From positions 4,769,213 through 4,833,212 of the forward strand of contig NC_049995.1 in NCBI RefSeq assembly GCF_000003815.2: DNA of 64,000 nucleotides, in the 5' to 3' direction. Shown in pieces: positions 18,801 through 59,915 of the stretch (its first letter is position 1; each line of letters starts with the position of its first letter). Source of the DNA: Branchiostoma floridae. Taxonomy: Eukaryota; Chordata; Leptocardii; Amphioxiformes; Branchiostomatidae. The notes beneath the pieces are model-generated. The model was not told where the DNA came from and searched no databases. It was given only the letters and a program-made list of their open reading frames with translations. A program made the translations under genes and the position numbers.

Positions 18801-19141
18801 AGGAGTTCTGTTCGAATTGCAAAACCTACTCCATATAGCCTTCTTTCATCCTCAGGGAGGCCTTTCCAGAAGAAGGTGTAACCTTCGCCTTCCTCAGTCA
18901 ACGAACCCTCCTCTGCTAGTCGTGTCTCTGAGAGTGCAGCTATGTCTATGTTGTACCTGCCTAATTCAGCTGCGATCAGTGCGGTACGCCGTTCAGGACA
19001 TTCAGATTGGTCATTGTCAAGTAATGTTCTTATATTCCAGCTTGCAAGTGTTAGGTTTATTCTCTTCTTCTTGTTGCGACCGCATATGTGGGACGCCACG
19101 ACAGGTACGGCCGCCTGCCCGTGGTAAGTTGGAGCGAACAA
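15857..19141 (-). CDS. Non-LTR retrotransposon ORF2: APE endonuclease, reverse transcriptase, C2H2 finger
   Basis: A continuous 1,094-codon frame. The N-terminal endonuclease carries SWNIRT (~35), ALSETRL (~70), GDFNARVG (~181) and TDHRMV, the metal-binding and catalytic blocks of APE-type nucleases. Reverse-transcriptase blocks follow: DLTKAFDTVN, TGVRQGCVIAP, LQYADDAA (~781, catalytic YADD) and NCGKTEAM. The C-terminus ends in one canonical C2H2 finger (CEECGRTCKS...HQRTH, ~1066-1086). Together these nick target DNA and copy the element's RNA into it. The frame has no ATG ahead of the endonuclease: the first methionine is ~129, the frame opens after a stop just upstream, and 19141 is a TTG. 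So either the start is lost or frameshifted, or a non-ATG start is used. The clade is uncertain (RTE-like or a relative). It sits between the candidate 5' exon at 12951 and exon 1 of the Ig-Death gene. Confidence 0.9.
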   Translation of the reverse strand: MFAPTYHGQAAVPVVASHICGRNKKKRINLTLASWNIRTLLDNDQSECPERRTALIAAELGRYNIDIAALSETRLAEEGSLTEEGEGYTFFWKGLPEDERRLYGVGFAIRTELLKVAKEDPQGLSERIMTWRIPLQNNRYLTLISTYAPTLVASDAEKDSFYEALNTAVRAVPHADKLAILGDFNARVGNSHHLWQRVMGVHGVGKCNDNGLRLLSFCAEHDLVITNTLFQLRTMHKTTWMHPRSKRWHMLDYVLVRQLDRKDVKITRVMRGAQGWTDHRMVRTRLEIHIKKHARKNAHAGKLNTRALEDSGKREELQTALASRLSHALEDLTADTELLTTAWEAVASTLNTTARQVLGTTTKRNRDWFDEQREDIHTLLREQHSAHAAVLRSPSPANRARLAEVRSQAQREIRKMKNEWWTRLATEIQGYADKGNQQQFYCALKAAYGPRRGSNFPVRSADGTTLITEKAAILARWAEHYRQLLNRHTEVDDSVLDDVPKLPVLESLDDPPTLEEVQASVNSLKNNKAAGPDEVPGEILRHGGEAVALCLHSFVVACWNSGCVPQQWKDADLVSIYKKKGDRASCSNSRGISLLSSAGKVLSRIMLLRLIKAVAEEVLPESQCGFRKDRSTVDMIFVLRQVQEKCREQHQDLYMVFIDLTKAFDTVNRPLLWEVLGRFGCPDRFLRVLKALHDGARVRVIGGGGKSDPFEVCTGVRQGCVIAPVIFNLFLAAVMLAAKQRIKPEDCISLTYRLDGNLFNLRRLKAHTRVTQEDILELQYADDAAVTGSTAAGLQRNLNTLDDTYTRAGLLINCGKTEAMDLGRPGTEPAAFSIKDTALKSVPAFTYLGSVLSVTGDITDEVQRRIGLASSSFGRLASRVFLNKDLTIKTKVAVYKAICLSILLYASEAWTPYRRHIRMLEQFHTRCLQRILGLKWWHKVPHAEIRRRADTEPLETLLLQRQLRWAGHVIRMPGNRLPRHMLYGELTKGKRTVGGQHKRFKDNLKANLKKCGIPPQGLETSAADRNRWRQECAAGAARFTASFNQQYEERRRRRHLPTSNTSTSSNHICEECGRTCKSRIGLTSHQRTHAVNRT

Positions 19142-19545
19142 TGTTTAGGCCACCTTTTCTAGGCCCTTCCCCAGCTTTGGGGTGGGCAGTGTGATCCCTG
19201 AAAAGGGCTGCCCAGACGCTTCAGGCGCTGCCTTCGGGGGCTGTCGCTCCTCTTCCAGCCATCCGACGACCATCAGCACTGAAGCCGCCACACGTGCAGG
19301 TTAAGAGCTGAGAGCTTCTGGTTGCGTCTCACCTGCTCCCGTCACTCCGCCCCTATCGCCGTGGGACTTGAGACTTGGTGCGGAAATGCTTCTGTGACAT
19401 GCGGTCGGTAGAAGTGAAGCATGTGCTTGAGAGGTTTTAAGTGTAGAGGGAGCGCACGAGCCCAATCCACTGTCTTGACCGTCCTGGCGAGTGCTCCAGT
19501 ACCACTCCCTGCCATTTACCAGTACCACTTAAATAAGCTGCCATT
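19142..19545 (-). mobile_element. Probable 5' region of the LINE
   Basis: GC-rich sequence continuous with the ORF above and unlike the AT-rich surroundings, which resume near 19550. It is probably the 5' UTR or the remains of an upstream ORF. No protein domain was recognised. Confidence 0.5.
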
Positions 19546-20755: not shown

Positions 20756-20835
20756 ACATGAATACAGCTGCTGTACCCTGTCAACAATGGCCGACACGGA
20801 AATGGGAACAGGTCAAAGGTCATCCCAGCGGCAAG
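20756..20835 (+). CDS. Ig-Death gene exon 1 (start codon)
   Basis: The exon lies between CAG at 20753 and GTGAGA at 20836. The ATG at 20787 gives 16 codons plus one base (phase 1), matching the next exon. Another ATG at 20758 is in a different frame and would not read into the Ig domain, so 20787 is preferred. Confidence 0.55.
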
Positions 20836-23800
20836 GTGAGAAAGTTTGTTTACTCAGTGTCAATAACAAACAGGTACAGGAAGTTTTGACTGTGCCCAGA
20901 CTTTCGATCGTGACTCAGTGGTCGCGGGAAACCTATATGTAATCCTTTCACTGGTTCTACACTGTTGTACACTGTAGATTTATTTCCTTTTGTAGTGGTT
21001 TTATTTCAGGGTAGGAGGAAAAATGAGCCTTTGGTTGGGTTTCAAGTTTGTGGTTGGAAAAGTTCCATATAGTACTGTAAATGCAGAAACTTTCGCGGTG
21101 GATTAATGTTCACGGTTTTCGCGACGGCCGCTGCACCGCAAATTTAAAACCACCGCGAACATTTAATCATGGCAGTAAGAGACTGCAGTGTATGGTGCTA
21201 CCGCGAAATTAAAACCACCGCGAAAAGTCCATTTCCCGCTACCGCGAAATTAAATCTCCGCGAAATTAAATGTATTTACAGTATACAAGGGAAATTCGCA
21301 ATGAAATTTGGATGAATGTGCCTTGCCATTAAAAAACTGTCACAGTTGGAAGAAAGTAAATGTAGTAACTGCAATGAAGAGGTCAATTAATGAAACCACT
21401 GCAAACGTTTCATGATTTACAGTAACTAACAATATAATCCTTGATCATATAGACCTGCCATTGGCAATTCTATTCTTTTCCCATTTTAAAAATGTATCCT
21501 AGCTTCCAGGGGATTTTAGTCACTAGCCCAACTTATGAGCACAAGAAAAGGTACCATTTTAAAGACAGAATTAAAGATCTCCAAATGTTGCCATACAATA
21601 TAAAAGTGAATTACTGTTATAAACAGAAAGACAGCCTTAAGTTTATCCAGTGTACCCTAGTTTCGGCCCACAATGGCCAGTTGCAAGCCCGCCCACCTAT
21701 TTAACTGAAACTTGAATTTGTCACTGAAACCTGGGGACAAAAAAATCCAACTTCTTTGTTGTACAACTTGTAGTCATGTAACTGTCTATGTTAGACAGTA
21801 ACAATTACATTTACATGGGGAAACCTTGGGGAACTAATATTTTTCATGACTTTGACCGTGATGACTTTTTTTTGTATGAAAATACATCCTATTTCAGTAT
21901 GTTGTACTACTAGACAGTACTACTAGTTGTGTATCAGACACTAGCAGATGATTATAGTCATTAAATTTTGTAAAGTGGGCTGTTTACTTTTACTAACTCA
22001 TGATCAGAAATGATTTCCACTTTATCTTATCATTTTAAATGGACAGGTAAGAAAACATCAACTTTTTTGTAGTTTCATAGATATTTATTTATTTATTTAT
22101 TGGTTTGGCTGCACCGAACACACAGCCAGGGCTGCCCAACTAGCCTATGGCTATTACAAAGGGCTAGCCCTGCTGACAAACACATAAACAATACAAATTT
22201 TAAAAAAAAAGAACATTTGTATGTACATGGTGTAGGATAACTTACATATCATCTAATCATAGATATTAAGGCATAATTATTTCTAAACAAGTTTTTGGTC
22301 AATTATCACGTTTTTTTATAAATCTTATAGTTGTAGTACATTATAATAGGGCCTGAAAGTCATCTTTGGAGACACGTTACCTAAATAGGAAATTATGAAA
22401 GTTGATGTTAACGCTAGTTTACCTTTATCCTTGGGGTAACCTATATCCATTGCTTTTCAAAGGTTGTTTCCAATTGTAATATTTTCAAAATAAAGCGGTT
22501 AGAACTCACATTTCGTCAGCATGATAGCTCTAAATTCCCTGCTTTTGAAAACAACGAATATAGGTTACACCATGGATAAAGGTGAACTAGCGTTACATAT
22601 TTTTTCTTCATTTAACAGCGTACATGGTGTGGTCGTGCCTACTGGTCCTACTGGCCACAACTACAGTCTTAGGGGAGGACAAAAACGAATCCTTTAGCAT
22701 CATCGTGAAAGAAGGAGAAGACGTCATTCTCAACAATTGTACGTCCCAGGACCAGGGCGTCATCTGGACGTACAAAAAGCCTGGCGCCGCGTCGTACACA
22801 CCGCAGTCGTGTCCGCAGGAGTGCGACAACCGTTGCCAGGGGCGCGATGACGTCATCAACCTTCCCGCGGTCAGTCGAACGTGCGGCGGGTCCTATCAGT
22901 ACGTCTCTTCTGGCGACGATGCAGGAATCCGTTGGAAGTGTACCTACCACTTACAAGTACACTGTGAGTTTTGTTTGCTACCCTTACAATTTTCAACTGA
23001 TCTTAAACTGTATTCACACGGGAAGTCATGTGCTTCTTAACCCTTATAGTTTCAGCCCTATAAAATGCTACCAGTGCCAGGGTTGGCCGCTGACCTCCAA
23101 AAAGAAACCCCTGAGCAAGGCCGAAGTCCCCAACTTCCAGGGCTCATGCACTACACGCTCCCAAAGCTGCTACTTTGGGGGAATACGCTATCCTGGATAT
23201 ATCCGGGCTCAGCACACAGGGCATGTATATGTGTGCCAGATATATCCGGGTTTGGCAGTTTAAGGTTTAAGATCAAACTTCAACAAAATTTATGTAAGAC
23301 CTAGGAAAAAAGTTTCCTGTTTCCAGGTACCAACCCTGGAAAAACCTGCCAACCCAAAATTTTTGTCAAACTTATGATCAATAAAAAACTTTCGTCAAAC
23401 TTATGATCAATAATTCCGATATTTTTCTGTCTGTAATCCACAGACTTGCCCCTCCCAGTCAACATCAGGAACCCCACCCCAGCTGTGTTCGAGAACGACC
23501 GCGTGGCCATCACGTGCCAAACTGACGACCTGGGGAATCCGCCAGCGAGTTTCACCAGTCCGGACTTTCCTCCAACGTCAGGTTCCGAGCCCAGCACGAC
23601 CCAAATTATCCAGTCTGCTAACAGGGATGATAACGGGACAACCTTCACTTGTACCCTTGAGTATGAAGGTCAAGATCAAAATGCTGAAGCCTTCACTCGG
23701 ACATATGAGGAGACCACCAGTCTTATTGTATACTGTAAGTTCAGACCTTCCTGTTTTTTAATTACTAAAAGTAGAACAGTTAAATTCAGCGCTCCCCATC

Positions 23801-26800
23801 TTTAAGATACAACAGTCCTACACTTTTCCGAAAGTAGATAGACTTTTGTTAGGAATGCTGCGACTATCAAAATACACAATAGATACAGATACTGTATATA
23901 TTTATATATATATATATATATATATAAGTGTAAGAGTGTGTGTGTGTGTGTATGAGTATGTATGTGTGTGTAGGGGTGTATGTGCATGTGTGTGTACATG
24001 TATAAAAAAAATACTGTTGCTCTAAAAGTTGACAATTTTTCCCCAGATCTTCCAAGAGAAGTCACCATAAAAGTCCACAATAACAACGCAACTCTGGAAG
24101 AAGGGGACAACGTCATCTTAGAATGCGTTTTCGGGGACTCTTATCCTCGACCCAGTGTAACGTGGTGGAAGAACGGCAGAAAACTGCCAGGAGAAACTTC
24201 AACGACCTTGGAGTTGCGTTCCTTGAAGGTCGTAGACAAAGGAGAGTACATGTGTGACACAACAGTGAATGCTCTTGGCCAAGAGAGATCTAAGAGAAGT
24301 GCAGCAGTGTTTCTGAATGTCACTGGTACTCCCAATACTGGAACGGGTAAGAATGAAAAGTCCTAATTTGTTGTAATTCATGTTTTATCAGACTGTAGAC
24401 TGATATAATTCTGAATCAACAATGTTACCTTCATGCACAACACATGCACTGACATGCTCCAATGTTGTGCCCTTGGGAAAGGCACTTTACACAAATTTCC
24501 TCACTTCACTCAAGTGGAAATGATTATAGTGTAATTGGACTAGTCCCAAGGGACTCATTTGCGCTTCCCGCATATTCATTACCCTTTGATATGTACTCAG
24601 TGGAGTTATGGACTGAAGTCCAGAATTAGAATGTTTTTCCATAATTAAAGTGATGCCTGTTGTACCTAGCCACAGTTAGGTTCATCCCTCGGATAGGATG
24701 TTAAATGGAGGTGCTGTGTCATGTAAAATAAACCTACAACATTCATCAAAAAGAGTAGGGGTGCTTCCTGGTGTGAGTGGACCAAATAAATCTGTCCGGA
24801 TATGCAGCTTGTACTTTTGAGAACAAACCTGGTGTGTTACGCCTAGATGTGGTTTACCAGGTACTACATGTGAATGGGTATACAAACAAATTCAGTGTTA
24901 TTCAAACAACACAGACTACCTCTGTCAATGTTCTTAATCGTAAACAAGAGAAATTGAAATTTTGATCACAATGAAAGTCATGTTGTAAATCTTTGTTTTG
25001 CTACTTTTATGCATAAAGGTTATGAAATTCTATTGGTAATGTATTCTACTTAAACTAAGTTAAAGTAAAAGTGCACGGGTGACTTTTTGCATTTTTCTGT
25101 AACTGCAGGTCCTCCAATTGTACCATCTGCACTTCCTTTCACCAGTGGCCTTCCAGTATCCACTATTGGCACCATAGCAGGTTTGCTTGACTGTTTTGTT
25201 TTGCCTAAGATAAGAAAGAACCACCTTAAGACATACATTCTAACATGTACACATCTGGTTCTGTTCTGAGACTGTGCACAGAGTACAAGCTGCAATTAAA
25301 ATTAAGATCATACTTTAAAGGTCTACTACGCAGTTTTTTGCGCTCAAATTTGAAATATTCTAGAACTAAGAAATCTCAGATTTACTACTAACTTTTTGAT
25401 ACTTTTTGACACTTTTGTGTCATTATTTCACGTTTGCAACGTAGAGAATTAGCCTACAAACATTTCGTCCTACGCACGCTGTAACTTGTTGACCCCCCTA
25501 GTTAGGCACTGGTGAGAATTCAAACAAGAATTAATCATCAACGGTTATTGGTCGGGAATCTCCGGTGAGTTCCGGGTGCGTGAAAGGTCACGGTGAACCA
25601 CGTGACCAATCTCCGGGTAGGCTCGGGCAGACTCGGGACTACTCGGATTTCGTCAGTGAAGAAACAAAATGGCTGAAACCCAGCGCGGGCGTGCAGATTC
25701 CCAGGTTTTCAAACGCGCTCGCACGGGGAAAATATCGACTCCTGACATGCCTTGAGTAGTGTTCCGTAACATGGTAGGCTTGATTCAACTAACTATATAA
25801 AGAAATGGCCGGAAAATGGATTTTTTGTTTTCAGTTTGAAGCGCAAATAACTGCGTAGTAGACCTTTAATATGGTTTGATACACTCGCACTGAAATGGAC
25901 TATTACTCCAGGGCTCTAGCCAGCGTCCGTCTTTCCGTCAATTGACGGAAATTCGCTGCGTCTGACGGAAAGGTTTTAAAACCAATCCGTCAACCTTGAC
26001 AGACAAAAATCCTTGTTGGAAGCTATAGGCGGCTGTTTGTTTTGCTATTGTTATTATTGTTGACGAAGTGTGTCGGCGCCCTTTCGCATACGATAATCTC
26101 ATTAAAAACCTGTTTTTCAAGGTCTCAGTTCAGTCTTTCTAACTCCTGGAATAGTGTTTTCGCGGTTTTCGCGACAATGGGAATTGGCTGACGGAAAAAA
26201 AATTCGAGCTGGCTAGAGCCCTGTATTACTCTAAGTGTGGGAGGATTTTTATCATGCTCGAGGTGTGGCTCTCCTCAAACACTGGACCTCTAACTTTATG
26301 TCCCATCCATAGGAGTGGTGTAATTTTTCCCAAGGGCACATTACATTCAGTGACTGCTAAGGATTTGAACCCAGCACCTTTAAGATTCTGACGTCAAGAC
26401 CATCATCATCATCTAAAGTCAACAACTCTAACGACAAGACTACCTTTCTTCTAGGTGTCGCAGGTGTTCTACTACTAGTTGTCATTGCTATAGCGTCAGT
26501 CATCTGTATACGCCAGAAAAGGAGGAACCCTGATCGTGGAGGTAGGTTTTCTGTTAATGTGTCACACTCTTTATAAGAAACAGTTATTGTAACAATAAGG
26601 CCACAGCAAGTAAATTTTATAGATGACATCAGCGCGCGCATCAATTTTCGCCTGATTTCAGAAGAGAAAAAAATTTTTTTTCTTCTGCAGGGATGGTTAA
26701 CATGACGATAAAGTACCAAAATGAGCAAATATGTTGTATTGCATTTATTGTAGCCTAATAATTGTACTTGTAGAAGTGACACTTGAGAGGTACCCAGGGC

Positions 26801-29800
26801 TGTAGTTGTAGAAATAAAACTTATTGGATAGTTGTAAAAGTGACACCAATATGGAAGCCATGAGTATGGTTACCAACTTTGTTGGTGATGCCAGTCTACC
26901 ACACTAGTGTCACTAGTACATGTCTTGAATACAGGAATGAATGCCTTGTTGGCTCTGATACCATGTTTTGTCCCTTTAATTCTTGTTACAACATTCATCA
27001 CAACTTTATGGTGCCTATTTTTGAAAATGTAGCCATCTTGTTTATTTTCACCCAATCTTGTTTTTTTTCGCCCTATCACACTATTTTTGCAGTCTGCAGA
27101 GTATGTCATCCATAGAATTAACTTGCTGTGGCCTAATTGACACATCAAATTCACTCTATTTTTGCACCACTTAACAATGTTGATATCAAGAACTTCATAT
27201 TGAACACTGTTAGCTAAATTGACTTTGTTGCTCTATTTCAGGTGAGGAGCAAATAGATGGAAGACACTCGAATGTTCGCTATCAGCCAAATGGAGGCTGC
27301 CAAATTGGACAAGATGTTGTAAGTTCACAAGATTGTCTAATAAAACTGAGAACTTGGCATTATAGGTTATCTGACATTCTACATGTCCTTTTGTTGTGCA
27401 CCAAAGATTTTGTTTGTGCACCTAAATCTAAGGTAAGTTGCGCCAGTGCACCTTGAGTTTTTATTGTCTTATTCAAAAGGACATTGTGGTTTATATCTTA
27501 AAGTTTGTAGAAAACTGTATATAGGCCCAAGTCAATTGTAAATGTCATACATGTAGATAGAAGTTATAAGAAAACAACTTACATGTACAACGCAGTAAGC
27601 ACATAATTAGAATTTTTCATTGCCAATGAAACATATTTTCTGTTTATTCTGCAGAGACCCTTGCTGGGCAACTCAATTGGTAACTATTTTTCTTCTGTAT
27701 GTTTTTTGCAATTATACTCACACAGACAATTGCCTTTAAGTTTATGATTTAACTGGTGAGACTATGGTGCTGTAACAGTGGGGTTCAAGTGCCGCCAAAC
27801 TGACCATGCCAAAGGGCCAGGCTTTTAGCTAGGATTTTAAAATAGGGAGTAGAAACTTATTGGTGAGTCACGGTAAGTGACTATTGTAGGGGGGTCCGGG
27901 GGCATCCACCTTCCATGTTGCAGAGTTTTTGATGATTTTAAGTTTAAAAAGTGCATTCTTAGGTATCCCAAGAGGCAAAAATACTGTTCCAGAGGTCACA
28001 GTAGAAGACTGTGACCACAGATGACCTGGTAGCATCCCTGGTCAATCAGAATTTCATGCTTGTCAGTCAATTTTCTCCCAGTGTAAGGGCGTCCAAGGGC
28101 ATCAAATTTCTTGTTATTCTAAGAAAAGTGCGTCCAGATGACGCGTTGACGCATGCCTGGCTAAAAGCCTGCAAAGGGCCCAACCTTCTGGTGTAGTGGT
28201 TGGCGGCATTGGGTTTGTGAGTTGGTAGCCCGGGTTTGGTACGGGTTCGAATCTCAGGAGCCAGGAGACTGTTTCTCAATGCCACAGATAGTAAAAATTT
28301 ATTTACAATTCTATAATAACATTAGACCAATTTCATCTTAAAATCTATCTTTAATGAATTAGCTGCTGATCAAGACTTCAGTCACAGATCATCTAACAGT
28401 TCACACAGCAACGGAGCGAAAGGACACAAAATCATCATTGAGTGCAGGGATGCAAAAATCTACCAATCACAAGCCTGTAAGTATCAACTGGTTATCATTA
28501 TTTAGACTTAAGTTCTTGGGACTAGGAGGACTTACACGCTGGTCCGTTGCTAGGCTATTCTTCTCGTTGCTATGCTAATAGGCCACACCCACAGGCGGGT
28601 CTGAAGTGCCGCACGGCATATATACAGAAAGCAGCAGAAGTGTTTCCCAAGATTACGATCGATTAGTTTATGATATAAATTAACAAAAGTATATACATGA
28701 TAAATGAAAATGTCAGCCTTGGAACGACGTAAAACTTAAAAAATGTCAGTGTAATACAGTGCTCAAATCCCCGCTTTCACGGAACGTGGCAAAAGTGACT
28801 TTCGGTCGCTGAACTCTGAACCCCACCGACTTTTTTCTCTCATTTACGTTGGAATCAAACATTTATACCATTATCTAAGCTCAAACTTTCTAAAATCAAT
28901 TTCTACTGTGTAGTTTTTTATGTCTGATACATTTAAAATCATGTTCCTATTTACCAATACTTTTTTCTCCCATAATTCCTGAACGCACCGATAGAAAAAC
29001 AAATACGAAAACCAAGATGGCGGGCGGCTTTTGCTCTTTCAAATGGAGTAGTTTTTGTTTCATTTTATCGGTAGGATCGGAAGATATCGGTCAAAATATG
29101 AAATGTGCACTTTATTCAGAGTTTTCACGCTGAAAAAGAGATGTTTTGAAGCTATAATGAGGCGGTGTTGGCATAGATGACAGAGCCTTATTAGCGCCCC
29201 TTTGTCTTCGCGGGCACTTTCATGCAAATCGCCCCTTTGTGTCTGTGCTGGGAGCGGGGTTTTCAACTGTAAATCAAGGTTACGGTCGCATTTGTCTCGT
29301 CACGAAAATGCAAATGAGCAAACGCCCGATTTCACGACCACGAAATTGGAATATGACCTGACGTTGCGACGCCGCACGTGAGTTGCCCAATCCCGGCACG
29401 CGAGGAAGCCCAGGACAGCGATCGTGCCCCACGACGTATGTCTATGATTCTCAAACTGACAACATACAATTGACGAATCGCTGGGAAAAATGATGCCCCA
29501 CTACGTAACGTTATGTCTATGATTCTCAAACTGACAACATACAATAATTGACGAATCGCTGGGAAAAATGATGCCCCACGACGTATGTCTATGATTCTCA
29601 AACTGACAACATACAATTGACGAATCGCTGGGGAAAATGATGCCCCACGACGTATGTCTATGATTCTCAAACTGACAACATACAATAATTGACGAATCGC
29701 TGGGAAAAATGATGCCCCACGACGTATGTCTATGATTCTCAAACTGACAACATACAATTGACGAATCGCTGGGAAAAATGATGCCCCACGACGTATAGCT

Positions 29801-32800
29801 ATGTCTATGATTCTCAAACTGACAACATACAATTGACGAATCGCTGGGAAAAATGATGCCCCACGACGTATGTCTATGATTCTCAAACTGACAACATACA
29901 ATTGACGAATCGCTGGGAAAAATGATGCCCCACGACGTATGTCTATGATTCTCAAACTGACAACATACAATTGACGAATCGCTGGGAAAAAATGATGCCC
30001 CACGACGTAACGTTATGTCTATGATTCTCAAACTGACAACATACAATAATTGACGAATCGCTGGGAAAAATGATGCCCCACGACGTATGTCTATGATTCT
30101 CAAACTGACAACAAACAATTGACGAATCGCTGGGAAAAATGATGCCCCACGACGTATGTCTATGATTCTCAAACTGACAACATACAATTGACGAATCGCT
30201 GGGAAAAATGATGCCCCACGACGTATGTCTATGATTCTCAAACTGACAACTTTGTCATCTGCCCTACTATGATTTTAAATCTAGTAACATCTCACAATGG
30301 TCCTTACAACCGGTGTCAGATTTTTTATCTAAGATCTGACATTGGCCCTTACACCATGTCAGGTTTTCAATCTAACATCTGACATTTGTCCTTACGCCAT
30401 GTCAGATTTTTAATCTAACACCTGACATTTTTCATATTATTGTCAGATTTCCTGTCTGACATCTGACAATCATCCTCCCAATGTAAGATTTCTAGTCTAA
30501 CATCTGACACTTTTTGTAGCACTGTCAGATTTTTTAATCAAACATCAAACATTCGTCTTCAAACAGTCAGATTATTTCAATCTAAAATCTGATTTAAAAA
30601 TCTGACATGGCGCAAGGACCAATGTCAGATGTTATATTAAAAACCTGACTTGGTGTAAGGACCAATGTCAGATGTTAGATAAAAAATCTGACTTGGTGTA
30701 AGGACCAATGTCAGATGTTAGATTAAAAACCTGACTTGGTGTAAGGACCAATGTCAGATGTTAGATTAAAAACCTGACTTGGTGTAAGGACCAATGTCAG
30801 ATGTTAGATTAAAAACCTGATACCGGTTGTAAGGACCATTGTCAGATGTTAGATGTTAAAATCATAGGTCATATTTTAGGTCATCATAGTAGGGCAGATG
30901 ACAGAATTAGTTCTTCGCATTGTCATATGTCACATATTCACATCATTACGGTTGTCAGATGTGAAATCAGATATGACAGAACTGATGTATGTTGTTAGTT
31001 TGAGAATCATAGACATACGTCGTGGGGCATCATTTTTCCCAGCGATTCGTCAATTGTATGTTGTCAGTTTGAGAATCATAGACATACGTCGTGGGGCATC
31101 ATTTTTCCCAGCGATTCGTCAATTATTGTATGTTGTCAGTTTGAGAATCATAGACATAACGTTACGTCGTGGGGCATCATTTTTCCCAGCGATTCGTCAA
31201 TTATTGTATGTTGTCAGTTTGAGAATCATAGACATACGTCGTGGGGCATCATTTTTCCCAGCGATTCGTCAATTCACCTCCTTGGTCAATTGTATGTTGT
31301 CAGTTTGAGAATCATAGACGTACGTCGTGGGGCATCATTTTTCCCAGCGATTCGTCAATTATTGTATGTTGTCGGTTTGAGAATCATAGACATAACGTTA
31401 CGTAGTGGGGCATCATTTTCCCCAGCGATTCGTCAATTGTATGTTGTCAGTTTGAGAATCATAGACATACGTCGTGGGGCACGATCGCTGTCCTGGGCTT
31501 CCTCGCGTGCCGGGATTGGGCAACTCACGTGCGGCGTCGCAACGTCAGGTCATATTCCAATTTCGTGTTCGTGAAACCGGGCGTTTGCTCATTTGCATTT
31601 TCGTGACGAGACAAATGCGACCGTAACCTAAATCAAAGTCTCTGAAATCGTTTGGTGCGTGTATTCAGTACTTTTGCCCTGTAAGTTACAAGCAAGAAAT
31701 TTTGGTCAAAGCTGCTTGTTTTGAGCTAAATTTGGACGAACCACGTTTTTTTTTCACTATCGTTCCGTAATTTGATTTGATCAGCAACTATATTCTGGGC
31801 ATCGGTTACATGAATCAGACTTAAGTTTTATTCCTCCTAAGTTGTGTGTGTTTTGTGTATGCTTGTGTATTTTTCCTTCTTTATTCTGTTTTTGGGTCGA
31901 GTTTTCGTGACCGCTTGGGAAATCAAACATGACGCCCGCCAGTTCATCTCAGGTCAATGGGATAGTCTACTGTATTGTGGTGGGAAATGTTGCGTGCGGT
32001 TTCGGATTGTTTTCTTTATTAAACTAAACACAACGTTAGTTAATTCATTCCAGGACTTTTTTTCAAAATGACCAGAACACATTTCAAAGAATATGTGACT
32101 CAATTAGATAATTGGTCTCAAAATAAATGGTGCCTGTGTTTTTTTAATGTACAACTCACCCATGCTGCTACAAATGATGTTACCCAAGCGGGATGATTGT
32201 TGTCAAGAACTGACGGCGTCGGTATTATAATTCGTAACAATTTACAAGGCACCTTTTTAAAAAGGTCTAAAATGCCAGTTCAGGATTACAAATAAACTTT
32301 ACGGTTGGTCTACAACCTGGGCAATGATTGGAGAGAAAAACATACAAACTGTACAAACTCAATGTAAACAAGAGAAATTGAAATTTTGATCACAATGAAA
32401 GTCATGTTGTAAATCTTTGTTTTGCTACTTTTATGCATAAAGGTTATGAAATTCCATTGGTAATGTATTCTACTTAAACTAAGTTAAAGTAAAAGTGCAC
32501 GGGTGACTTTTTGCATTTTTCTTTAACTGCAGGTCCTCCAATTGTACCATCTGCACTTCCTTTCACCAGTGGCCTTCCAGTATCCACTATTGGCACCATA
32601 GCAGATTTGCTTGACTGTTTTGTTTTGCCTAAGATAAGAAAGAACAACCTTAAGACATACATTCTAACATGTACACATCTGGTTCTGTTCTGAGACTGTG
32701 CACAGAGTACAAGCTGCAATTAAAATTAAGATCATACTTTAAAGGTCTACTACGCAGTTTTTTGTGCTCAAATTTGAAATATTCTAGAACTAAGAAATCT

Positions 32801-35800
32801 CAGATTTACTACTAACTTTTTGATACTTTTTGACACTTTTGTGTCATTATTTCACGTTTGCAACGTAGAGAATTAGCCTACAAACATTTCGTCCTACGCA
32901 CGCTGTAACTTGTTGACCCCCCTAGTTAGGCACTGGTGAGAATTCAAACAAGAATTAATCATCAACGGTTATTGGTCGGGAATCTCCGGTGAGTTCCGGG
33001 TGCGTGAAAGGTCACGGTGAACCACGTGACCAATCTCCGGGTAGGCTCGGGCAGACTCGGGACTACTCGGATTTCGTCAGTGAAGAAACAAAATGGCTGA
33101 AACCCAGCGCGGGCGTGCAGATTCCCAGGTTTTCAAACGCGCTCGCACGGGGAAAATATCGACTCCTGACATGCCTTGAGTAGTGTTCCGTAACATGGTA
33201 GGCTTGATTCAACTAACTATATAAAGAAATGGCCGGAAAATGGATTTTTTGTTTTCAGTTTGAAGCGCAAATAACTGCGTAGTAGACCTTTAATATGGTT
33301 TGATACACTCGCACTGAAATGGACTATTACTCCAGGGCTCTAGCCAGCGTCCGTCTTTCCGTCAATTGACGGAAATTCGCTGCGTCTGACGGAAAGGTTT
33401 TAAAACCAATCCGTCAACCTTGACAGACAAAAATCCTTGTTGGAAGCTATAGGCGGCTGTTTGTTTTGCTATTGTTATTATTGTTGACGAAGTGTGTCGG
33501 CGCCCTTTCGCATACGATAATCTCATTAAAAACCTGTTTTTCAAGGTCTCAGTTCAGTCTTTCTAACTCCTGGAATAGTGTATGAAAAACATACAAACTG
33601 GGACTGGCCATGGACAGTTTAATAAATGGTGTCTTCTATTTGAGCACAGTGGCGCTCGGTGCAACTTGGTGCAACCAATCCGTTCCAACTGTTGCGCTAT
33701 CTTGTTCTATTTTATCGGAAGGAACTTTCAACCCGTATCCTGTCAATAATTTGTCGCTGAAAAGTGGCTTGGTAAAGCTGTTTATATTACAAATACGTTC
33801 AGTTTGGAATATTTTACTACTACTAGCGCCACATTGAATCTTTTGCCGTCGAAACCCAGCACTAGTAAATCGTCCAACTTCACCAGCGGCGAGCTGACTG
33901 ATATATATATTTTTTTTGATGATGGAATATCTTTGGGTATTTTGACCGTCAGATAGACAAAACTATACTGAAAATCCTGTTGGTTTTGAGTCAGGCAACG
34001 AATTGGTATTGTTAAAACGTGCTAATGTAATAACAATTGGAACCAGCGGCAGGTAACGCATATGAATAGCGACGTTGACACAGGGGAGATATCGTAACAT
34101 AAACATTACTACGGCCCGCCTTTTGAATTTTTAACCAATCACGGACAGTTTCCAATGGAGACAACAGTGACTGGCATGTAATTATCATCAATATTCATGT
34201 CCCACAAGTGGGGATTTTTCATGCCCTTTTGGACCATCGTGTTATAAAAGAGATTGGAATGATAGCTTTTATATTTTACATCTTTTGTGTATCTATATTT
34301 CTAGGTTATTCTGTTGCAATGTATGAAAAGTTTCTACACATGATCAAGACATTTGAAAGGATGGTCTCTCATTTAACATTAACAACTGTAATGAAATCTA
34401 AACTTTAACTCAACTTTTACGAGCATTGACTATTATCTATATTATAAGGAATGTGATTTTTTTTCAATAATAAGCAGTTCCTAATCCTTTGCATCTAATA
34501 CAGGTGATGCAGAGTCCTTGGAAACCCCCTCAGAGCCATCCATGCAGCTGTCAACCCTTAGTCCATCCTCACTTCCGTATGACACCTCCAGTAGTGTGGA
34601 ACCTCGGAGTGATACCACCCCCAAGCGGGCCCCATCAGACCTCTCCCTGACCAATGAGAAGCTACCGTATCACCGCCACGAATCGAGCAACAACGACTTG
34701 TCCCAGGACACAAGAAGCCCTGACATGTCCCCAACATCCGAGAAGTTACTGTACCAAAAGGAGGACTCGAGCAGTGGCGGCTACCCAAAAACAGTAACAA
34801 GCACAGAAGGTGGCGACCACACTTCTTTCTCGCTTTCATCCAATCTCGAGGAAAGCACCAACCCAAAGCGAACTGCAGACTCCAGTGATCCACTGTCTCT
34901 CCAATCGCACTCTTCCTTGCCGGACAATTTGAATGTCGCTGATATGATAAGTATAGATAGCGACAACGCATCTAGGCAAACCAACTCAAACCCTAACATA
35001 CTGGACAACGGTACATCCAACATCACAGGTGTCCCCGCAGACAGTAATAACCTGAACAAACCAGTCAACAAACCACAACCGGACAAAAGCTCGGCAATCA
35101 AAAACCTGTCAGAGAGCTCGGAAAGTATGGAAGAGTCCATTGTACTTTTGGGGGCTGGAGGGACAGACCAAGAAGACCCGCCACCCATGAATGAAGATGT
35201 TGACTCTCTGAGGGAAAAAGGAGATGAGGTAAGAGCTTTTCATGCTTTGCTTATGCTTTGAATCAGGCAAAAAGGATGTTTGGTATGTCCCCATGTAGAA
35301 ACTTCAATTTCAAAGGTTAAGTTCTCTGAATCAGAAGATCTTGTAGACTTCAAATCTTTTAGAATATCTTAATTATAAATTCCTACAGTCCAGTATGAAG
35401 TGTATAGTTTTGTTTAACATTATTTATAGTATTTTACATACTGCATTATTTAAGACTGTATACGTACATGTAGACAAAAACATTTTTCTAGATCTAGCTA
35501 TTGATAACTTTTATTACTCTTTAATGTATTTCTACAGGTGGCCATCACTATAGACCTGATGTTGAAGAAGACACCACTGAAGACAGACCACCTTGGCGTT
35601 TCTTTTCTTAGGTTGACAGAACTGTATGTAAACCTGTCATACGCTGGCCACGGCCTCAATGATTGGAAAATGTTTGCTCATAAACTTGGTAAGTTCTGCC
35701 AGCATTTCTTAACACATGCTCTATACCTTGATGCTTGTTTTACTTCCATTATTCTTAGTGACTCTGCAACAGACCTGAATCAGCTTACAGATGTGCCCTA

Positions 35801-36696
35801 TGTGGCAGGGACTGTCATTCTCTTATAGGACTGTTTAGCCACAGTCGACGCTGTAGGGCGGATATCAATTAGGATTTTATCATGCTCAATATTGACCGAA
35901 GGAGGCCATATAGCTTAGTGACATACATAATGAAAGTAAGATTTAGATTATTGTGAAATCTGTTTTTCAATAATGGCATATTGATTCTAATAGCAACATG
36001 ATTCACACTGTTAAAAAGTTGATGTGACTTGGTCTTGAAGAAATTGAGGTATTCATTTCTAAATTTCTTCTCCTTAAAAGTTGCATGACCCATACACAAC
36101 ATGAATAAAATCAAACAAAGACAATGTAATTATAATCATTACCATTCTTTCTGCAGTATTGTACTGGACTGATTTTTCCATCAACTCTTTCAAACCACAT
36201 GGTGCATTGGGCATCGCCCATCTCTGTTTCAGCAGCCCAGGGCCACACAACTTTGTGCAATCACTACAACAAGGGGCTAGTCCACTGCCTGGTAGTAGTG
36301 TGTGCTCGAGTACCTTACTTTTTTCCAACTGATTTCTAAACAGAGAAAGCAGTACATTGTGTATGTACCATTCTTATGTCAATGGTACATGGCATGATAC
36401 GGCCAAGGATCGAACTCACTACCTACCAAATGCAAAGCAAACACTCTACCCACTCAGCACTGATGTATCAACCCTAGTATTCTTTTATCTTTCCAGGTTT
36501 GGACAGTCTGCATATCCAGGTGATTGACGGTTGTAGCTCCAAGCACAACTTAAAGCCAGCAGAGATTGTTGTCTACCACTGGCAGCGCATGGCAGACAGA
36601 GAGGGCAGCATTCCTTGTAGCAAAGAGAAACTAAGAGAGATTCTGGAGGAAATTGAAAGGCATGACTTAATTGCCATATTAGATGGGGAACAATAA
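20787..36696 (+). CDS. Ig-superfamily transmembrane receptor with cytoplasmic Death domain (12 exons)
   Basis: Exons: 20787-20835, 22619-22963, 23444-23734, 24047-24346, 25109-25180, 26455-26541, 27242-27318, 27655-27679, 28363-28476, 34504-35228, 35538-35688, 36497-36696. All introns are GT-AG, phases agree throughout, and the total is 2,436 nt (811 residues plus stop). Order: hydrophobic signal segment (~20-35), three Ig-like domains (~37-325), membrane helix (~349-371) with a basic RQKRR stop, a long Ser/Thr/Asn-rich tail, and a C-terminal Death domain (~722-808) with NDWKMFAHKLGL, HWQRMADREG and EEIERHDLIAIL. Death domains bind each other to assemble adaptor and caspase or NF-kB complexes, so this is probably a surface receptor with Death-domain output. 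A start at the second methionine (22624) would also give a clean signal peptide. A Death-less paralogue follows at 40649-45235. Ligand and adaptor are unknown. Confidence 0.82.
21075..21281. mobile_element. MITE with CTGTAAATGC termini, second copy
   Basis: Same family as 5926-6133: ends CTGTAAATGCAG and ATGTATTTACAG, TA on both sides, and CCGCGAAATTAAA repeats inside. It lies in intron 1 of the Ig-Death gene. Confidence 0.75.
21282..22082. other. Intron 1 sequence without named features
   Basis: AT-rich intronic sequence; no extra exon or repeat is supported. Confidence 0.45.
22083..22205 (-). mobile_element. LINE 3' tail fragment
   Basis: Read on the minus strand, a GC-rich 3' UTR-like block (GGCAGCCCTGGCTGTGTGTT) runs into AATAAATAAATAAATAAAT at 22083-22102. 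A 5'-truncated piece ending in a tetranucleotide tail is typical of CR1/L2-like insertions. The family is not proven. Confidence 0.5.
22409..22595. mobile_element. MITE just upstream of exon 2
   Basis: TAACGCTAGTTTACCTTTAT pairs with ATAAAGGTGAACTAGCGTTA, and the inner GGTAACCTATAT/ATATAGGTTACACC also pair. The element ends 23 bp before the exon 2 acceptor (AG at 22617-22618), so the branch point probably lies within it. Confidence 0.75.
22619..22963 (+). CDS. Ig-Death gene exon 2: signal segment and Ig1
   Basis: Acceptor AACAG, donor GTGAGT, phase 1 to 1. It encodes MVWSCLLVLLATTTVLG (signal) and the first Ig-like domain, which has extra cysteines (CPQECDNRC) and TCGGSYQYVSS...RWKC. The paralogue has the same pattern. 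Confidence 0.85.
23444..23734 (+). CDS. Ig-Death gene exon 3: Ig2
   Basis: One Ig-like domain per exon, phase 1 to 1. Key residues: NPTPAVFENDRVAITCQTDD near the start and GTTFTCTLEYEG near the end supply the disulphide pair. Donor GTAAGT. Confidence 0.85.
23900..24000. repeat. (TA)n and (TG)n microsatellites in intron 3
   Basis: A pure TA stretch near 23907-23926 and interrupted TG/TATG tracts near 23936-24000, 46 bp before exon 4. Confidence 0.8.
24047..24346 (+). CDS. Ig-Death gene exon 4: Ig3
   Basis: C2/I-type Ig domain: EEGDNVILECVF, SVTWWKNGRKL (the core Trp) and DKGEYMCD (the DxGxYxC motif). Phase 1 to 1, donor GTAAGA. Confidence 0.9.
24440..24730 (+). mobile_element. SINE copy in intron 4
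   Basis: Plus-strand order: TTGTGCCCTTGGGAAAGGCA, TTTCCTCACTTCACTCAAGT, then the core at ~24690 (GGATGTTAAATGGAGGTG). Same family as 6355-6595 but diverged, with an insertion between the blocks. Confidence 0.6.
25109..25180 (+). CDS. Ig-Death gene exon 5: juxtamembrane spacer
   Basis: A 72 nt exon, phase 1 to 1, coding a Pro/Ser/Thr stalk (GPPIVPSALPFTSG...). The donor is the weak GTTTGC. Skipping would keep the frame. A 99.6% copy at 32533-32604 has the donor changed to AT. Confidence 0.7.
25319..25865. mobile_element. MITE with TTAA target
   Basis: AGGTCTACTACGCAG and CTGCGTAGTAGACCT are perfect inverted ends, each flanked by TTAA (25315-25318, 25866-25869), as in piggyBac or Kolobok elements. 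The second duplicate is at 32743-33289. The interior frame is not a recognisable protein. Confidence 0.8.
25909..26223. mobile_element. hAT-type MITE with 8 bp target duplication
   Basis: Ends CAGGGCTCTAGCCAGC and GCTGGCTAGAGCCCTG; TATTACTC is duplicated at 25901-25908 and 26224-26231. A truncated copy (its first 249 bp) ends the duplicated segment at 33333-33581. Confidence 0.9.
26238..26400 (-). mobile_element. SINE fragment in intron 5
   Basis: Minus-strand copy of the core (GAGGAGAGCCACACCTCGAG, GTTAGAGGTCCAGTGTTTG) with the GTGCCCTTGGG block and a degenerate B box (GGTTCAAATCC) near 26365. Confidence 0.65.
26455..26541 (+). CDS. Ig-Death gene exon 6: transmembrane helix
   Basis: It encodes GVAGVLLLVVIAIASVIC followed by IRQKRR, a single-pass helix with a basic cytoplasmic flank. 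Phase 1 to 1, acceptor TTCTAG, donor GTAGGT. Confidence 0.85.
26599..27133. mobile_element. PIF/Harbinger-type MITE in intron 6 (TAA target)
   Basis: GGCCACAGCAAGTAAATTTT pairs imperfectly with AGAATTAACTTGCTGTGGCC over ~33 bases, including a GATGACAT/ATGTCATC block. TAA lies on both sides (26596-26598, 27134-27136). Confidence 0.75.
27242..27318 (+). CDS. Ig-Death gene exon 7: cytoplasmic
   Basis: Phase 1 in, phase 0 out, with strong acceptor TATTTCAG and donor GTAAGT. It encodes a short polar stretch containing SNVRYQPNGG, a possible tyrosine motif. Confidence 0.75.
27655..27679 (+). CDS. Ig-Death gene exon 8: 25 nt micro-exon
   Basis: CTGCAG acceptor and GTAACT donor frame only 25 nt (RPLLGNSI plus one base). 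Its phase change (0 to 1) is exactly what joins exon 7 to exon 9. Confidence 0.6.
27818..28171. mobile_element. hAT-type MITE with 8 bp target duplication, inside a SINE
   Basis: Ends CAGGCTTTTAGC and GCTAAAAGCCTG; CAAAGGGC is duplicated at 27810-27817 and 28172-28179. The flanks (27765-27809 and 28180-28275) look like one interrupted tRNA-like SINE, whose right part has AGTGGTTGGCGG and the B box GGTTCGAATCT. Confidence 0.85.
28180..28275 (+). repeat. tRNA-like SINE head
   Basis: TGGTGTAGTGGTTGGCGGC (A box) and GGGTTCGAATCTC (B box) lie at normal spacing; CTTCTGG and CCAGGAG could form an acceptor-like stem. The T stem is poor, so it is read as a retroposon head in intron 8, not a tRNA gene. 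Confidence 0.55.
28363..28476 (+). CDS. Ig-Death gene exon 9: cytoplasmic
   Basis: 114 nt, phase 1 to 1, donor GTAAGT. Polar sequence with SSNSSHSNGAKG and AKIYQSQA. Upstream, the intron holds a SINE interrupted by a hAT MITE. Confidence 0.75.
28477..29277. other. Intron 9, left part; nothing named
   Basis: Intronic sequence with no supported exon between exon 9 and the foldback element. Confidence 0.45.
29278..31628. mobile_element. 2.35 kb foldback element with 8 bp target duplication
   Basis: Outer arms of ~160 bp are inverted repeats starting GGTTACGGTCGCATTTGTCT and ending in CCGTAACC. TAAATCAA is duplicated at 29270-29277 and 31629-31636. Inside each arm is a tandem array of a 69-78 bp unit (GCCCCACGACGTATGTCTAT...): about 12 copies on the left (29425-30250) and about 7, inverted, on the right (30985-31490). 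The centre (30255-30895) is itself an inverted pair built of ~43 bp units (CAGATGTTAGATTAAAAACC, CTGACTTGGTGTAAGGACCA). Long peptide repeats read through the arrays (GASFFPAIRQLYVVSLRI) are by-products, not genes. It lies in intron 9 of the Ig-Death gene and has no transposase of its own. Confidence 0.9.
32364..33581 (+). repeat. 1,218 bp duplicated segment, copy 2 (dead exon 5)
   Basis: Copy of 24940-26157. The block is bounded by a 17 bp direct repeat, GAAAAACATACAAACTG (32335-32351 and 33584-33600), which is not part of copy 1. This copy therefore looks like the inserted, derived one. Confidence 0.9.
32533..32604 (+). pseudogene. Duplicated exon 5 with broken donor
   Basis: Same 72 nt as exon 5 (25109-25180), but the first intron base pair is AT (CAGATTTGC), not GT (CAGGTTTGC). 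The copy cannot be spliced in normally and would be out of order relative to the membrane exon. Confidence 0.85.
33601..34503. other. Intron 9, right part; nothing named
   Basis: AT-rich intronic sequence ending in a pyrimidine-poor but usable acceptor (CTAATACAG) for exon 10. No other exon is supported. Confidence 0.45.
34504..35228 (+). CDS. Ig-Death gene exon 10: long disordered tail
   Basis: 725 nt coding ~241 residues rich in Ser, Thr, Pro and Asn. A short motif recurs three times: SSLPYDTSSS, EKLPYHRHESS and EKLLYQKEDSSS. Farther on is SLPDNLNVADMIS, nearly the same as the last residues of the paralogue (LPANLTISDMIS). Phase 1 in, 0 out; donor GTAAGA. Confidence 0.85.
35538..35688 (+). 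CDS. Ig-Death gene exon 11: Death domain, first half
   Basis: Phase 0 to 1. It encodes the start of the Death fold, ending LNDWKMFAHKL; the Trp and following hydrophobics are helix 2 core residues of the family. Confidence 0.85.
36170..36478 (-). mobile_element. tRNA-derived SINE in intron 11
   Basis: Read on the minus strand, the head starts near 36478 with GTGCTGAGTGGGTAGAGTGT (A box) and GAGTTCGATCCTTG (B box), as in a tRNA. The body runs to ~36170. The core differs from the 6355-6595 family, so this is another SINE family. Confidence 0.65.
36497..36696 (+). CDS. Ig-Death gene exon 12: Death domain, second half, and stop
   Basis: It encodes the rest of the Death domain: VVYHWQRMADREG, then LREILEEIERHDLIAILDG, ending at TAA 36694-36696. 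The ERxDL helix is typical of Death domains. Confidence 0.88.
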
Positions 36697-47574: not shown

Positions 47575-47674
47575 NNNNNNNNNNNNNNNNNNNNNNNNNN
47601 NNNNNNNNNNNNNNNNNNNNNNNNNNNNNNNNNNNNNNNNNNNNNNNNNNNNNNNNNNNNNNNNNNNNNNNNNN
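47575..47674. other. Assembly gap (100 N)
   Basis: A run of 100 N between the convergent genes. Confidence 0.99.
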
Positions 47675-48329: not shown

Positions 48330-48605
48330 AAAATCCCCACACCTCTACGGTATCTTTAAACACTACTAGATATCAGCGACAAGTTTCTACGCTTTGCTAA
48401 AAGACGGAGAAGTTTTTAAACTAATTCCCTGGGGGAATTGAGCTTGAAACGTATGTCCATTGCATTCCACCGTTCGTGGTGAAACTAATAATTCCTACAC
48501 CTCCACGATATTACGAAGACTAGACTAAGTACAAGATATTAGTGACTAGTTTTCACAGCGACTACGCTTTGCTAACAGACGGAGAAGGTTTCAAACTAAT
48601 TCCCT
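48330..48605. repeat. Tandem duplication covering the end of the adhesion GPCR
   Basis: CTACGCTTTGCTAAAAGACG...TAATTCCCTGGGGG at ~48388-48437 repeats CTACGCTTTGCTAACAGACG...TAATTCCCTGAGG at 48562-48610, with CACACCTCTACGGTAT-like flanks also shared. The last ~15 codons and the start of the 3' UTR were duplicated into the 3' UTR. Confidence 0.7.
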
Positions 48606-48920
48606 GAGGCGTTCGCGTGGCAGACGATGAAAACGTACTCCTATTGACAACATAATGATTCTTCTTCTTTCCTTTACAAAGGAACTCCTTTCTCCACTTC
48701 TGAACGTCTTCTCGCATGACGCAATGGAAGAGGAAGATGAAGAGACCTTGTAGAGTGTTAAAGATGCAGAAGAGGTAGGCGAAGACTGTCCGGGCGGTGT
48801 TGTCGTCGATGACGAAGAAGAAACCGAAGAGCCAGGTGAGACCGAACAGGACCATGATGCTAAAGGCACGCCGTAAATGTCGGAGCACCCACTGGTGGTC
48901 TGCCTCGTTTTTCTTAGCAC
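48562..48920 (-). CDS. Adhesion GPCR exon: TM6, TM7, tail and stop
   Basis: IMVLFGLTWLFGFFFV (TM6 with the family's GLTWLFG), VFAYLFCIFNTLQGLFIFLF (TM7), a short basic tail and a TAG stop at 48564-48562. No PDZ-ligand terminus is obvious. Confidence 0.92.
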
Positions 48921-56297: not shown

Positions 56298-56351
<54 letters not shown>

Positions 56352-56354
56352 TTG

Positions 56355-56404
<50 letters not shown>

Positions 56405-59446: not shown

Positions 59447-59915
59447 CTGTAGAACATGTACAAGACATAGATGATTTTTAACTGTCTCAAATTTTGAGTT
59501 TAAATAGTGTATTTTAATTGTGAATTCAAATTGTGAATTTCCTGTGATGCCATAGTCCTAACCATATACAGATGTTAGTGATACTCCCCTTTTAGCCTTC
59601 GTCCCTAATCAATCCCAGCTATGTCCCTCCCAAAAGGAGTTATTGGTCATCCCCATTCCATGGGGTCAGCTGACCAGCTGTCCATGGGCGATGCCACATA
59701 ATTTTTAGCAAGGGGGTGTTGATCTGCAAGGTTGCATTACCTGAAAGTACTCTTAGGACTGGAAGTCTAAAATTGCCCTACTTCTTTGATACTTACAAAA
59801 ACTACTTACGATCAAAAATCTATACTAAACTATTAAAACGATCTTGAGTTACAGATGCAACACGCACACATACATAACCAAAAACAGTACCCCTGAACAT
59901 TTTTTCCGGAGGTAA

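What the first reader, a model, noticed from the sequence alone, without database searches (positions are those of the whole stretch)
20787..36696. An Ig-ectodomain receptor wired to a cytoplasmic Death domain
Seen: twelve exons with matching phases join to 811 codons giving signal, three Ig-like domains, one helix, a long tail and a C-terminal Death domain (WKMFAHKLG, HWQRMAD, EEIERHDLIAIL). Known: among well-studied receptors Ig and Death domains meet in UNC5, which also has thrombospondin and ZU5 modules; none are visible here. Amphioxus is known for new combinations of immune domains. Inference: a direct Ig-to-Death signalling receptor, possibly immune.
Basis: partly seen in the sequence, partly recalled or inferred. 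Interest (0 to 1): 0.88.

Follow-up and report, generated by a model that had tools for sequence, protein, structure and literature searches.

The report
Ig-domain receptors ending in Death domains
This gene, probably from a lancelet, encodes a predicted cell-surface receptor whose antibody-like outer part is joined, by a long inner tail, to a Death domain of the kind that can trigger cell death or inflammation; two related genes on the same chromosome have the same design and a neighbouring gene lacks only the Death domain, so the design looks real rather than a gene-prediction error.

Summary
Twelve GT-AG exons (20787-36696, +) join to one 811-codon frame: signal, three Ig-like units, one membrane helix, a 324-residue tail, and a C-terminal Death domain split by a phase-1 intron. 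This copy's Death domain alone misses Pfam's cut-off (21.2 vs 22.6 bits), but two further genes on the same chromosome have Death domains that pass it (34.3, 30.3), the same exon phases, a shared tail motif, and Ig plus membrane exons upstream. One closes as signal-V-Ig-Ig-helix-tail-Death, 738 aa. This answers the usual objection to novel lancelet domain pairs, gene-prediction error. A tandem neighbour (41855-45235) has three similar Ig units, helix and tail motif but stops three residues after the motif, without a Death domain. No ZU5, UPA or thrombospondin match was found in the protein, and the Death domain shows no special likeness to UNC5. Most likely mechanism: clustering brings Death domains together to recruit Death-domain adaptors; the neighbour may be a decoy. 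Transcripts, ligand, adaptor and immune role are untested. Verdict: a real small receptor family, a new variant of death-domain receptors.

The parts
20787..20835 (+). Gene A exon 1, proposed start codon; unverified 16-codon leader
   Evidence: frame and GT donor, phase 1 out; no homologue tested
22619..22963 (+). Exon 2: signal peptide and first Ig-like unit (phase 1-1)
   Evidence: no Pfam match; Ig part 36% identical to that of gene B; P3 relative passes V-set
23444..23734 (+). Exon 3: second Ig domain (phase 1-1)
   Evidence: Ig_2 28.4 bits, cut-off 27
24047..24346 (+). Exon 4: third Ig domain (phase 1-1)
   Evidence: Ig_3 48.7 bits, cut-off 30
25109..25180 (+). Exon 5: juxtamembrane stalk (phase 1-1)
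26455..26541 (+). Exon 6: transmembrane helix and basic stop-transfer (phase 1-1)
27242..27318 (+). Exon 7: cytoplasmic, phase 1-0
   Evidence: P3 has an exon of the same phases here
27655..27679 (+). Exon 8: 25-nt cytoplasmic micro-exon, phase 0-1
   Evidence: P3 has an exon of the same phases here
28363..28476 (+). Exon 9: cytoplasmic, symmetric 1-1, no counterpart in the P3 model
34504..35228 (+). Exon 10: long tail with motif DMIS at 34941-34952 (phase 1-0)
   Evidence: [DE]MIS occurs once in each of four tails, and in 442 of 100000 shuffles of this tail
35538..35688 (+). Exon 11: first part of the Death domain (phase 0-1)
   Evidence: tblastn hits of P3 and P4 Death domains, E 0.001 and 2e-5
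36497..36696 (+). Exon 12: rest of the Death domain and stop codon
41855..45235 (+). Gene B, tandem paralogue: six exons found (41855-42178, 42735-43007, 43292-43579, 44043-44228, 44346-44456, 44895-45235); three Ig units, helix, tail ending SDMISEGS-stop, no Death domain; its first exon was not found
   Evidence: one search had a wrong end for the third exon
28477..34503 (+). Intron 9 of gene A, holding a palindromic repeat element and a 99.4% copy of exon 5 with parts of introns 4 and 5

Best explanation
A type I membrane receptor of a small family (three genes with a Death domain on one chromosome). Ig-type outer domains bind a ligand or a partner cell. Binding clusters the receptor, the long tail lets the C-terminal Death domains meet, and these assemble with Death domains of cytosolic adaptors (FADD-, MyD88-, RIPK- or CRADD-like) to start a caspase or NF-kB type response. 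Gene B, with the same kind of outer part and tail motif but no Death domain, most likely acts as a decoy or dampener. Shown by sequence: architecture, family, a Death domain conserved between paralogues in a way consistent with purifying selection. Inferred: surface display, ligand-driven clustering, adaptor recruitment, outcome, decoy role.
For: 811-codon frame over 12 GT-AG exons. Three loci with the same block: tail exon 1-0, Death exons 0-1 and 1-stop; P3 also repeats the 1-0 / 0-1 exon pair after the helix. Ig and helix upstream in P3 and P4. PF00531 matches 3 of 3 Death domains, 2 of 3 over the cut-off. A profile of the three finds 11 PDB sequences at E up to 10: four of RIPK1 (E about 0.003), then at E 0.1 to 2 three of THOC1 and one each of NRADD, UNC5h2, FADD and ETV7; all but ETV7 carry a Death domain (THOC1's is recalled). 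dN/dS below 1 by NG86: P3-P4 0.26/1.73, A-P3 0.55/2.25 (YN00 0.68/1.33); the other estimates failed from saturation. Amphioxus (B. belcheri) has a FADD - caspase-8 pathway (PMC3196919, passages).
Against: This copy alone misses the Pfam cut-off. Both structure predictions were too poor to judge the fold (mean pLDDT 53). No transcript, protein, ligand or adaptor data. Outside the motif, A's tail is not more like P3's or P4's than shuffles (93 and 131 of 500 reach the score). A's first Ig-like unit and P4's V-like unit have no Pfam match, and P4's Ig stretch also passes the PKD profile (29.2 bits, cut-off 23.5, against Ig_3 34.1, cut-off 30). The nearest solved Death domains do not point to one adaptor. 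Death domains also occur in proteins without death signalling (ankyrins, THOC1; recalled).
Confidence: 0.62

Rival explanations
1. Gene-model artefact: exons 11-12 (or 10-12) belong to a separate gene and the Ig-Death join is false.
For: Apparent novel lancelet domain pairs have been argued to be prediction errors in many cases (PMC4967905, passages). Intron 9 is 6 kb and full of repeats.
Against: The same Ig - helix - tail - Death order and tail/Death phases recur in two diverged loci (39 and 45% identity to A in the Death domain). P3 closes as one 738-aa frame over 5.5 kb. Gene B ties exon 10 to the Ig gene: its terminal exon aligns with A's exon 10 (7 of 1000 shuffles reach the score) and with P4's (1 of 1000), though with P3's only 68 of 1000.
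Confidence: 0.05
2. A stripped UNC5: an UNC5-type netrin receptor that lost its thrombospondin and ZU5-UPA modules and works as a dependence receptor.
For: UNC5 is the known receptor with Ig outside and a C-terminal Death domain (recalled). Weak pairing of the family with two UNC5/MyD88-like Death domains in the tree (68/89, flagged as long branches). UNC5h2 is among the weak profile hits (E 1.2).
Against: The family profile ranks this genome's likeliest UNC5 28th and UNC5h2 (PDB 1wmg) 25th of 43 Death domains tested, while RIPK1 ranks 3rd. The intron inside the Death domain differs: phase 1 in the codon after KL in the family, phase 2 three codons further on in that UNC5. No ZU5 match in the gene span (44 matches from 53 candidates genome-wide, none there).
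Confidence: 0.12
3. An adhesion or guidance receptor whose Death domain serves as a scaffold or trafficking module and triggers no death or inflammatory pathway.
For: Ig outer parts are common in adhesion molecules; Death domains of ankyrins and THOC1 are not death-signalling modules (recalled); THOC1 is among the profile's weak hits.
Against: Single-pass receptors ending in a Death domain that have been studied (TNFR1, Fas, p75, UNC5) signal through it (recalled). The Death domain is kept better than the ectodomain: A against P3, 39% over the Death domain and 30% over the one Ig exon that a genome search found, at E 0.007.
Confidence: 0.2

Closest known systems
UNC5 netrin receptors
   Same: Type I receptor, Ig domains outside, C-terminal Death domain (recalled)
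   Different: UNC5 has thrombospondin repeats and ZU5-UPA (recalled), not found here; no special Death-domain likeness and a different intron inside the domain
TNF-receptor family death receptors (Fas, TNFR1, p75NTR) and NRADD
   Same: Single-pass receptor with cytoplasmic Death domain at or near the C-terminus (recalled); NRADD is the best solved-structure hit of P3 (E 0.014); Death-less members act as decoys in vertebrates (recalled)
   Different: Cysteine-rich TNFR repeats outside in the TNF-receptor family (recalled); Ig domains here, no TNFR repeat match
IL-1 receptor / sponge Ig-TIR receptors
   Same: Ig ectodomain wired to an adaptor-type signalling domain
   Different: TIR domain instead of Death domain; the Ig-TIR link is noted in Nematostella (PMC2575513, passage) and in sponges (PMC7308585, passage)
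MALT1 paracaspase
   Same: Combines a Death domain with Ig domains (recalled)
   Different: Cytosolic, Death domain N-terminal, caspase-like domain, no signal or membrane helix (recalled)
Amphioxus hybrid signalling genes (TNFR-caspase, Death-NACHT, Death-caspase)
   Same: Lancelet shortcuts between sensing and death-fold modules (PMC2575513, passages)
   Different: An Ig-Death receptor is not among the passages read, and the word immunoglobulin has no occurrence in the main text; supplementary tables were not seen

Membership tests
Death domain superfamily (PF00531) | Profile match over the curated cut-off | tested here: met
   2 of 3 family members over 22.6 bits (34.3, 30.3); the window's own copy just under (21.2) but P3 and P4 are 39 and 45% identical to it
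Death domain superfamily (PF00531) | Six-helix bundle fold | tested here: inconclusive
   only exon 12 was folded, without relatives; mean pLDDT 53
Immunoglobulin superfamily receptor | Ig domains outside a single membrane helix, with signal peptide | tested here: met
   2 of 3 Ig-like units have a Pfam match of their own over cut-off; the signal peptide is judged by hydropathy and eye
UNC5 | ZU5 (and UPA) domain between helix and Death domain | tested here: not met
   no ZU5 or UPA match in the 811 aa or in 10 selected + strand intron frames; no ZU5 in the gene span in the genome-wide search
UNC5 | Thrombospondin type 1 repeats outside | tested here: not met
   none in the 811 aa or in 10 selected intron frames; the genome-wide search scored only 150 of 809 candidates, so it adds little
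UNC5 | Death domain groups with UNC5 Death domains | tested here: inconclusive
   UNC5 ranks 25th and 28th of 43 by profile score; the tree did not include UNC5 itself and its link to two UNC5/MyD88-like domains is weak (68/89)
TNFR-type death receptor | TNFR cysteine-rich repeats outside | tested here: not met
   no TNFR match among the 15 families listed for the 811 aa at E up to 10
Death-domain signalling receptor (as a way of working) | Recruits Death-domain adaptors on clustering | not testable with these tools
   needs binding or cell assays
Immune receptor | Binds microbes or is induced by infection | not tested
   no expression or binding data were looked for or held

The most novel reading that the evidence does not exclude
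A chordate class of Ig death receptors in which different Ig ectodomains (three Ig-like units; V plus Ig; a V-like unit, judged by eye, plus Ig) are wired to one tail-and-Death cassette, with a paired Death-less sibling next door acting as decoy: an activating/decoy receptor set built from Ig domains instead of TNFR repeats, used for immune or cell-cell recognition.
Probability: 0.3. Interest if true: 0.78.

Novelty: new variant of a known kind. Interest (0 to 1): 0.6.

Why it matters
It adds a direct link between Ig-type recognition and Death-domain signalling without UNC5's ZU5 module, supported by three loci and so harder to dismiss than single predicted lancelet domain pairs. It gives a compact, testable system: three receptors with different outer parts but the same signalling end, plus a natural Death-less control in tandem.

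Tried and rejected
First Ig unit with gene B's as a two-row alignment: also unusable. No fold search was run on either.

UNC5 origin: tested by ZU5 and thrombospondin searches, profile rank, tree and intron position; not supported, not excluded.

Single-sequence PDB searches: weak and mixed for A and P3 (both list non-Death proteins too, such as AVR-Pik and mal3). P4 hits no Death-domain protein at E up to 10; its top hit, a designed TIM barrel at 3e-9, sums repeated short matches that are each insignificant (E 6-38) and I take it for a repeat artefact.

Tail similarity: gene B was read in a wrong frame; its three comparisons were dropped and repeated.

Death-domain remnant after gene B: no tblastn hit below E = 1 between 45236 and 48700, but the window has an unread gap at 47575-47674.

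Literature: the searches listed no paper on an Ig-Death receptor of lancelets as far as titles, abstract starts and the passages read show. Passages only were read of PMC2575513, PMC4967905, PMC7308585, PMC4284660, PMC8195603 and PMC3196919. Huang et al. 2008 (Genome Research), a likely place, is not held, and no supplementary file was seen.
Full report
WHAT IS THERE. All borders are GT-AG and the phases fit. They join to 2436 nt, 811 codons and a stop at 36696. The protein has a hydrophobic N-terminus, three Ig-like units in phase 1-1 exons, one strong membrane helix at residues 353-371, and a 324-residue tail (23% Ser+Thr). Its last 116 residues come from exons 11 and 12. Pfam finds Ig in exons 3 and 4 but not in exon 2. 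The Death profile gives 16.4 bits in the whole protein and 21.1-21.2 for the fragment, against a cut-off of 22.6. So from this copy alone the Death assignment is likely, not certain.

THE FAMILY. The window lies at C17:4769213-4833212 of a 513-Mb assembly. Its size fits Branchiostoma floridae; this is recalled, the assembly is unnamed and no call proves the species. A search with the Death region finds, besides the gene's own two exons, two other places, both on the same chromosome. A search with one of these finds the same three loci and then nothing better than E = 0.48 (6 matches from 11 candidates). I fetched 30 kb around the one and 40 kb around the other. P3 (C17 ~12.42 Mb, + strand) closes as a 738-aa protein of nine exons: signal, V-set Ig (27.8 bits, cut-off 26), a second Ig (45.8 bits, cut-off 30), membrane helix, tail, Death domain (34.3 bits); its start codon is a choice by eye. 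P4 (C17 ~17.42 Mb, - strand) has signal, a V-like unit without a Pfam match, an Ig domain (34.1 bits, cut-off 30; the same stretch also passes PKD, 29.2, cut-off 23.5), helix, tail, Death domain (30.3 bits); its small exons between helix and tail were not resolved. In all three genes the tail exon is phase 1-0, the first Death exon 0-1 and the last begins in phase 1. P3 also repeats the 1-0 / 0-1 exon pair just after the helix. The Death domains of P3 and P4 are 39 and 45% identical to A's. By NG86 protein changes are fewer than silent ones: 0.26/1.73 for P3-P4 and 0.55/2.25 for A-P3; by YN00 A-P3 is 0.68/1.33; the remaining three estimates failed, and dS is near or past saturation. This is consistent with purifying selection, no more.

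WHY NOT AN ARTEFACT. Banyai and Patthy argued that the apparent flood of new lancelet domain pairs may come from wrong gene models (PMC4967905, passages). A chance fusion would not be expected to recur with the same phases in three diverged loci. Gene B gives an independent tie between the Ig exons and exon 10: its last exon aligns with A's exon 10 (7 of 1000 shuffles reach the score) and P4's (1 of 1000), more weakly with P3's (68 of 1000). The motif [DE]MIS occurs once in each of the four tails (in 442, 49, 179 and 245 of 100000 shuffles for A, B, P3, P4); it was picked after seeing the tails, so these numbers flatter it. Against this: beyond the motif, A's tail is no more like P3's or P4's than shuffles are (93 and 131 of 500), whereas P3 and P4 are clearly alike (0 of 500). 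Transcript evidence is lacking.

THE DEATH-LESS NEIGHBOUR. Gene B, 5 kb downstream on the same strand, has three Ig units, a helix and the tail motif, and stops three residues after it. No Death-like sequence was found after it in the window (no tblastn hit below E = 1 there). With an ectodomain query the genome gives 58 matches at E up to 1 (80 candidates scored): the best six are the exons of A and B, the next is at 2.5e-5, and P3's Ig exon is at 0.007. Since P3 and P4 have the Death block, the simplest history is loss in B (inference).

IS IT UNC5? No ZU5 in the gene span (44 matches from 53 candidates genome-wide); no ZU5, UPA or thrombospondin match in the protein or in 10 intron frames that I picked from the + strand frames. 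The likeliest UNC5 of this genome lies on C3: its best ZU5 match and, 8 kb on, a split Death domain 52-55% identical to that of UNC5h2. The intron in that domain is at a different codon and phase. The family profile ranks UNC5 25th (1wmg) and 28th (this genome's) of 43 Death domains, RIPK1 3rd. In a tree of A, P3, P4 and 40 Death places that I picked from the 150 listed for this genome, the three form one clade (100/97), apart from the nine that lie beside ZU5; its deeper placement is open and long-branched. The three-member profile hits 11 PDB sequences at E up to 10: RIPK1 four times at about 0.003, and seven weaker ones of which six are Death-domain proteins and one, ETV7, is not.

HOW IT LIKELY WORKS. 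Shown: architecture, family, conservation of the Death domain. From established knowledge (recalled): Death domains assemble with each other, and single-pass receptors carrying one signal by clustering. Amphioxus has a FADD - caspase-8 route (PMC3196919, passages), and this genome has a large Death-domain set (150 of 588 candidates were scored, all 150 over the Pfam cut-off). Inferred: Ig-mediated binding clusters the receptor, the tail acts as tether, the Death domains recruit an adaptor, and B competes as a decoy. An immune role is possible, not shown.

NOVELTY. The text searches listed returned no description of such a receptor in what I saw (listings, and passages of six papers). The library lacks most subscription papers and the main amphioxus immune-repertoire paper. 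Lancelets are reported to shuffle Ig exons in phase 1-1 (PMC4284660, passages) and to build shortcuts between receptors and death-fold domains (PMC2575513, passages). I therefore rate it a new variant of a known kind, death-domain receptors, and not a new kind.

Noticed in passing
window 41855-45235 (+): Tandem paralogue B: three similar Ig units, helix and tail motif, but it ends right after the motif without a Death domain; its first exon was not located.
   Followed up: yes
window 24933-26157 and 32358-33581: A 1225-nt stretch (exon 5 with parts of introns 4 and 5) is repeated at 99.4% inside intron 9; the exon-5 copy has AT instead of the GT donor. Either a very young duplication or an assembly artefact.
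   Followed up: partly
window 29277-31629: Long palindromic element in intron 9: 348-nt arms 98% complementary, arms made of ~70-nt tandem units, with a second nested inverted repeat (30285-30851).
   Followed up: partly
window 15857-19144 (-): Uninterrupted frame of about 1095 codons with endonuclease and reverse transcriptase domains of a non-LTR retrotransposon (RVT_1 116 bits) and a C2H2-finger-like end below that family's cut-off.
   Followed up: partly
window ~48565-59477 (-): Adhesion-GPCR-like gene with C-type lectin (72.8 bits), SUEL lectin (80.5), GPS (59.2) and 7tm_2 (48.2) domains; convergent with gene B. Exons not assembled into one model.
   Followed up: partly
G000 C12:2898886-2958964 and C12:3255496-3259293: ZU5 and Death places 3-9 kb apart on the same strand, five times, suggesting a tandem array of ZU5-Death genes.
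   Followed up: no
window 34941-34952, window 45212-45223, L006 from 6451, L009 ending 7220 (- strand): Short tail motif [DE]MIS shared by the three Death receptors and the Death-less gene B; function unknown, perhaps a docking site.
   Followed up: partly
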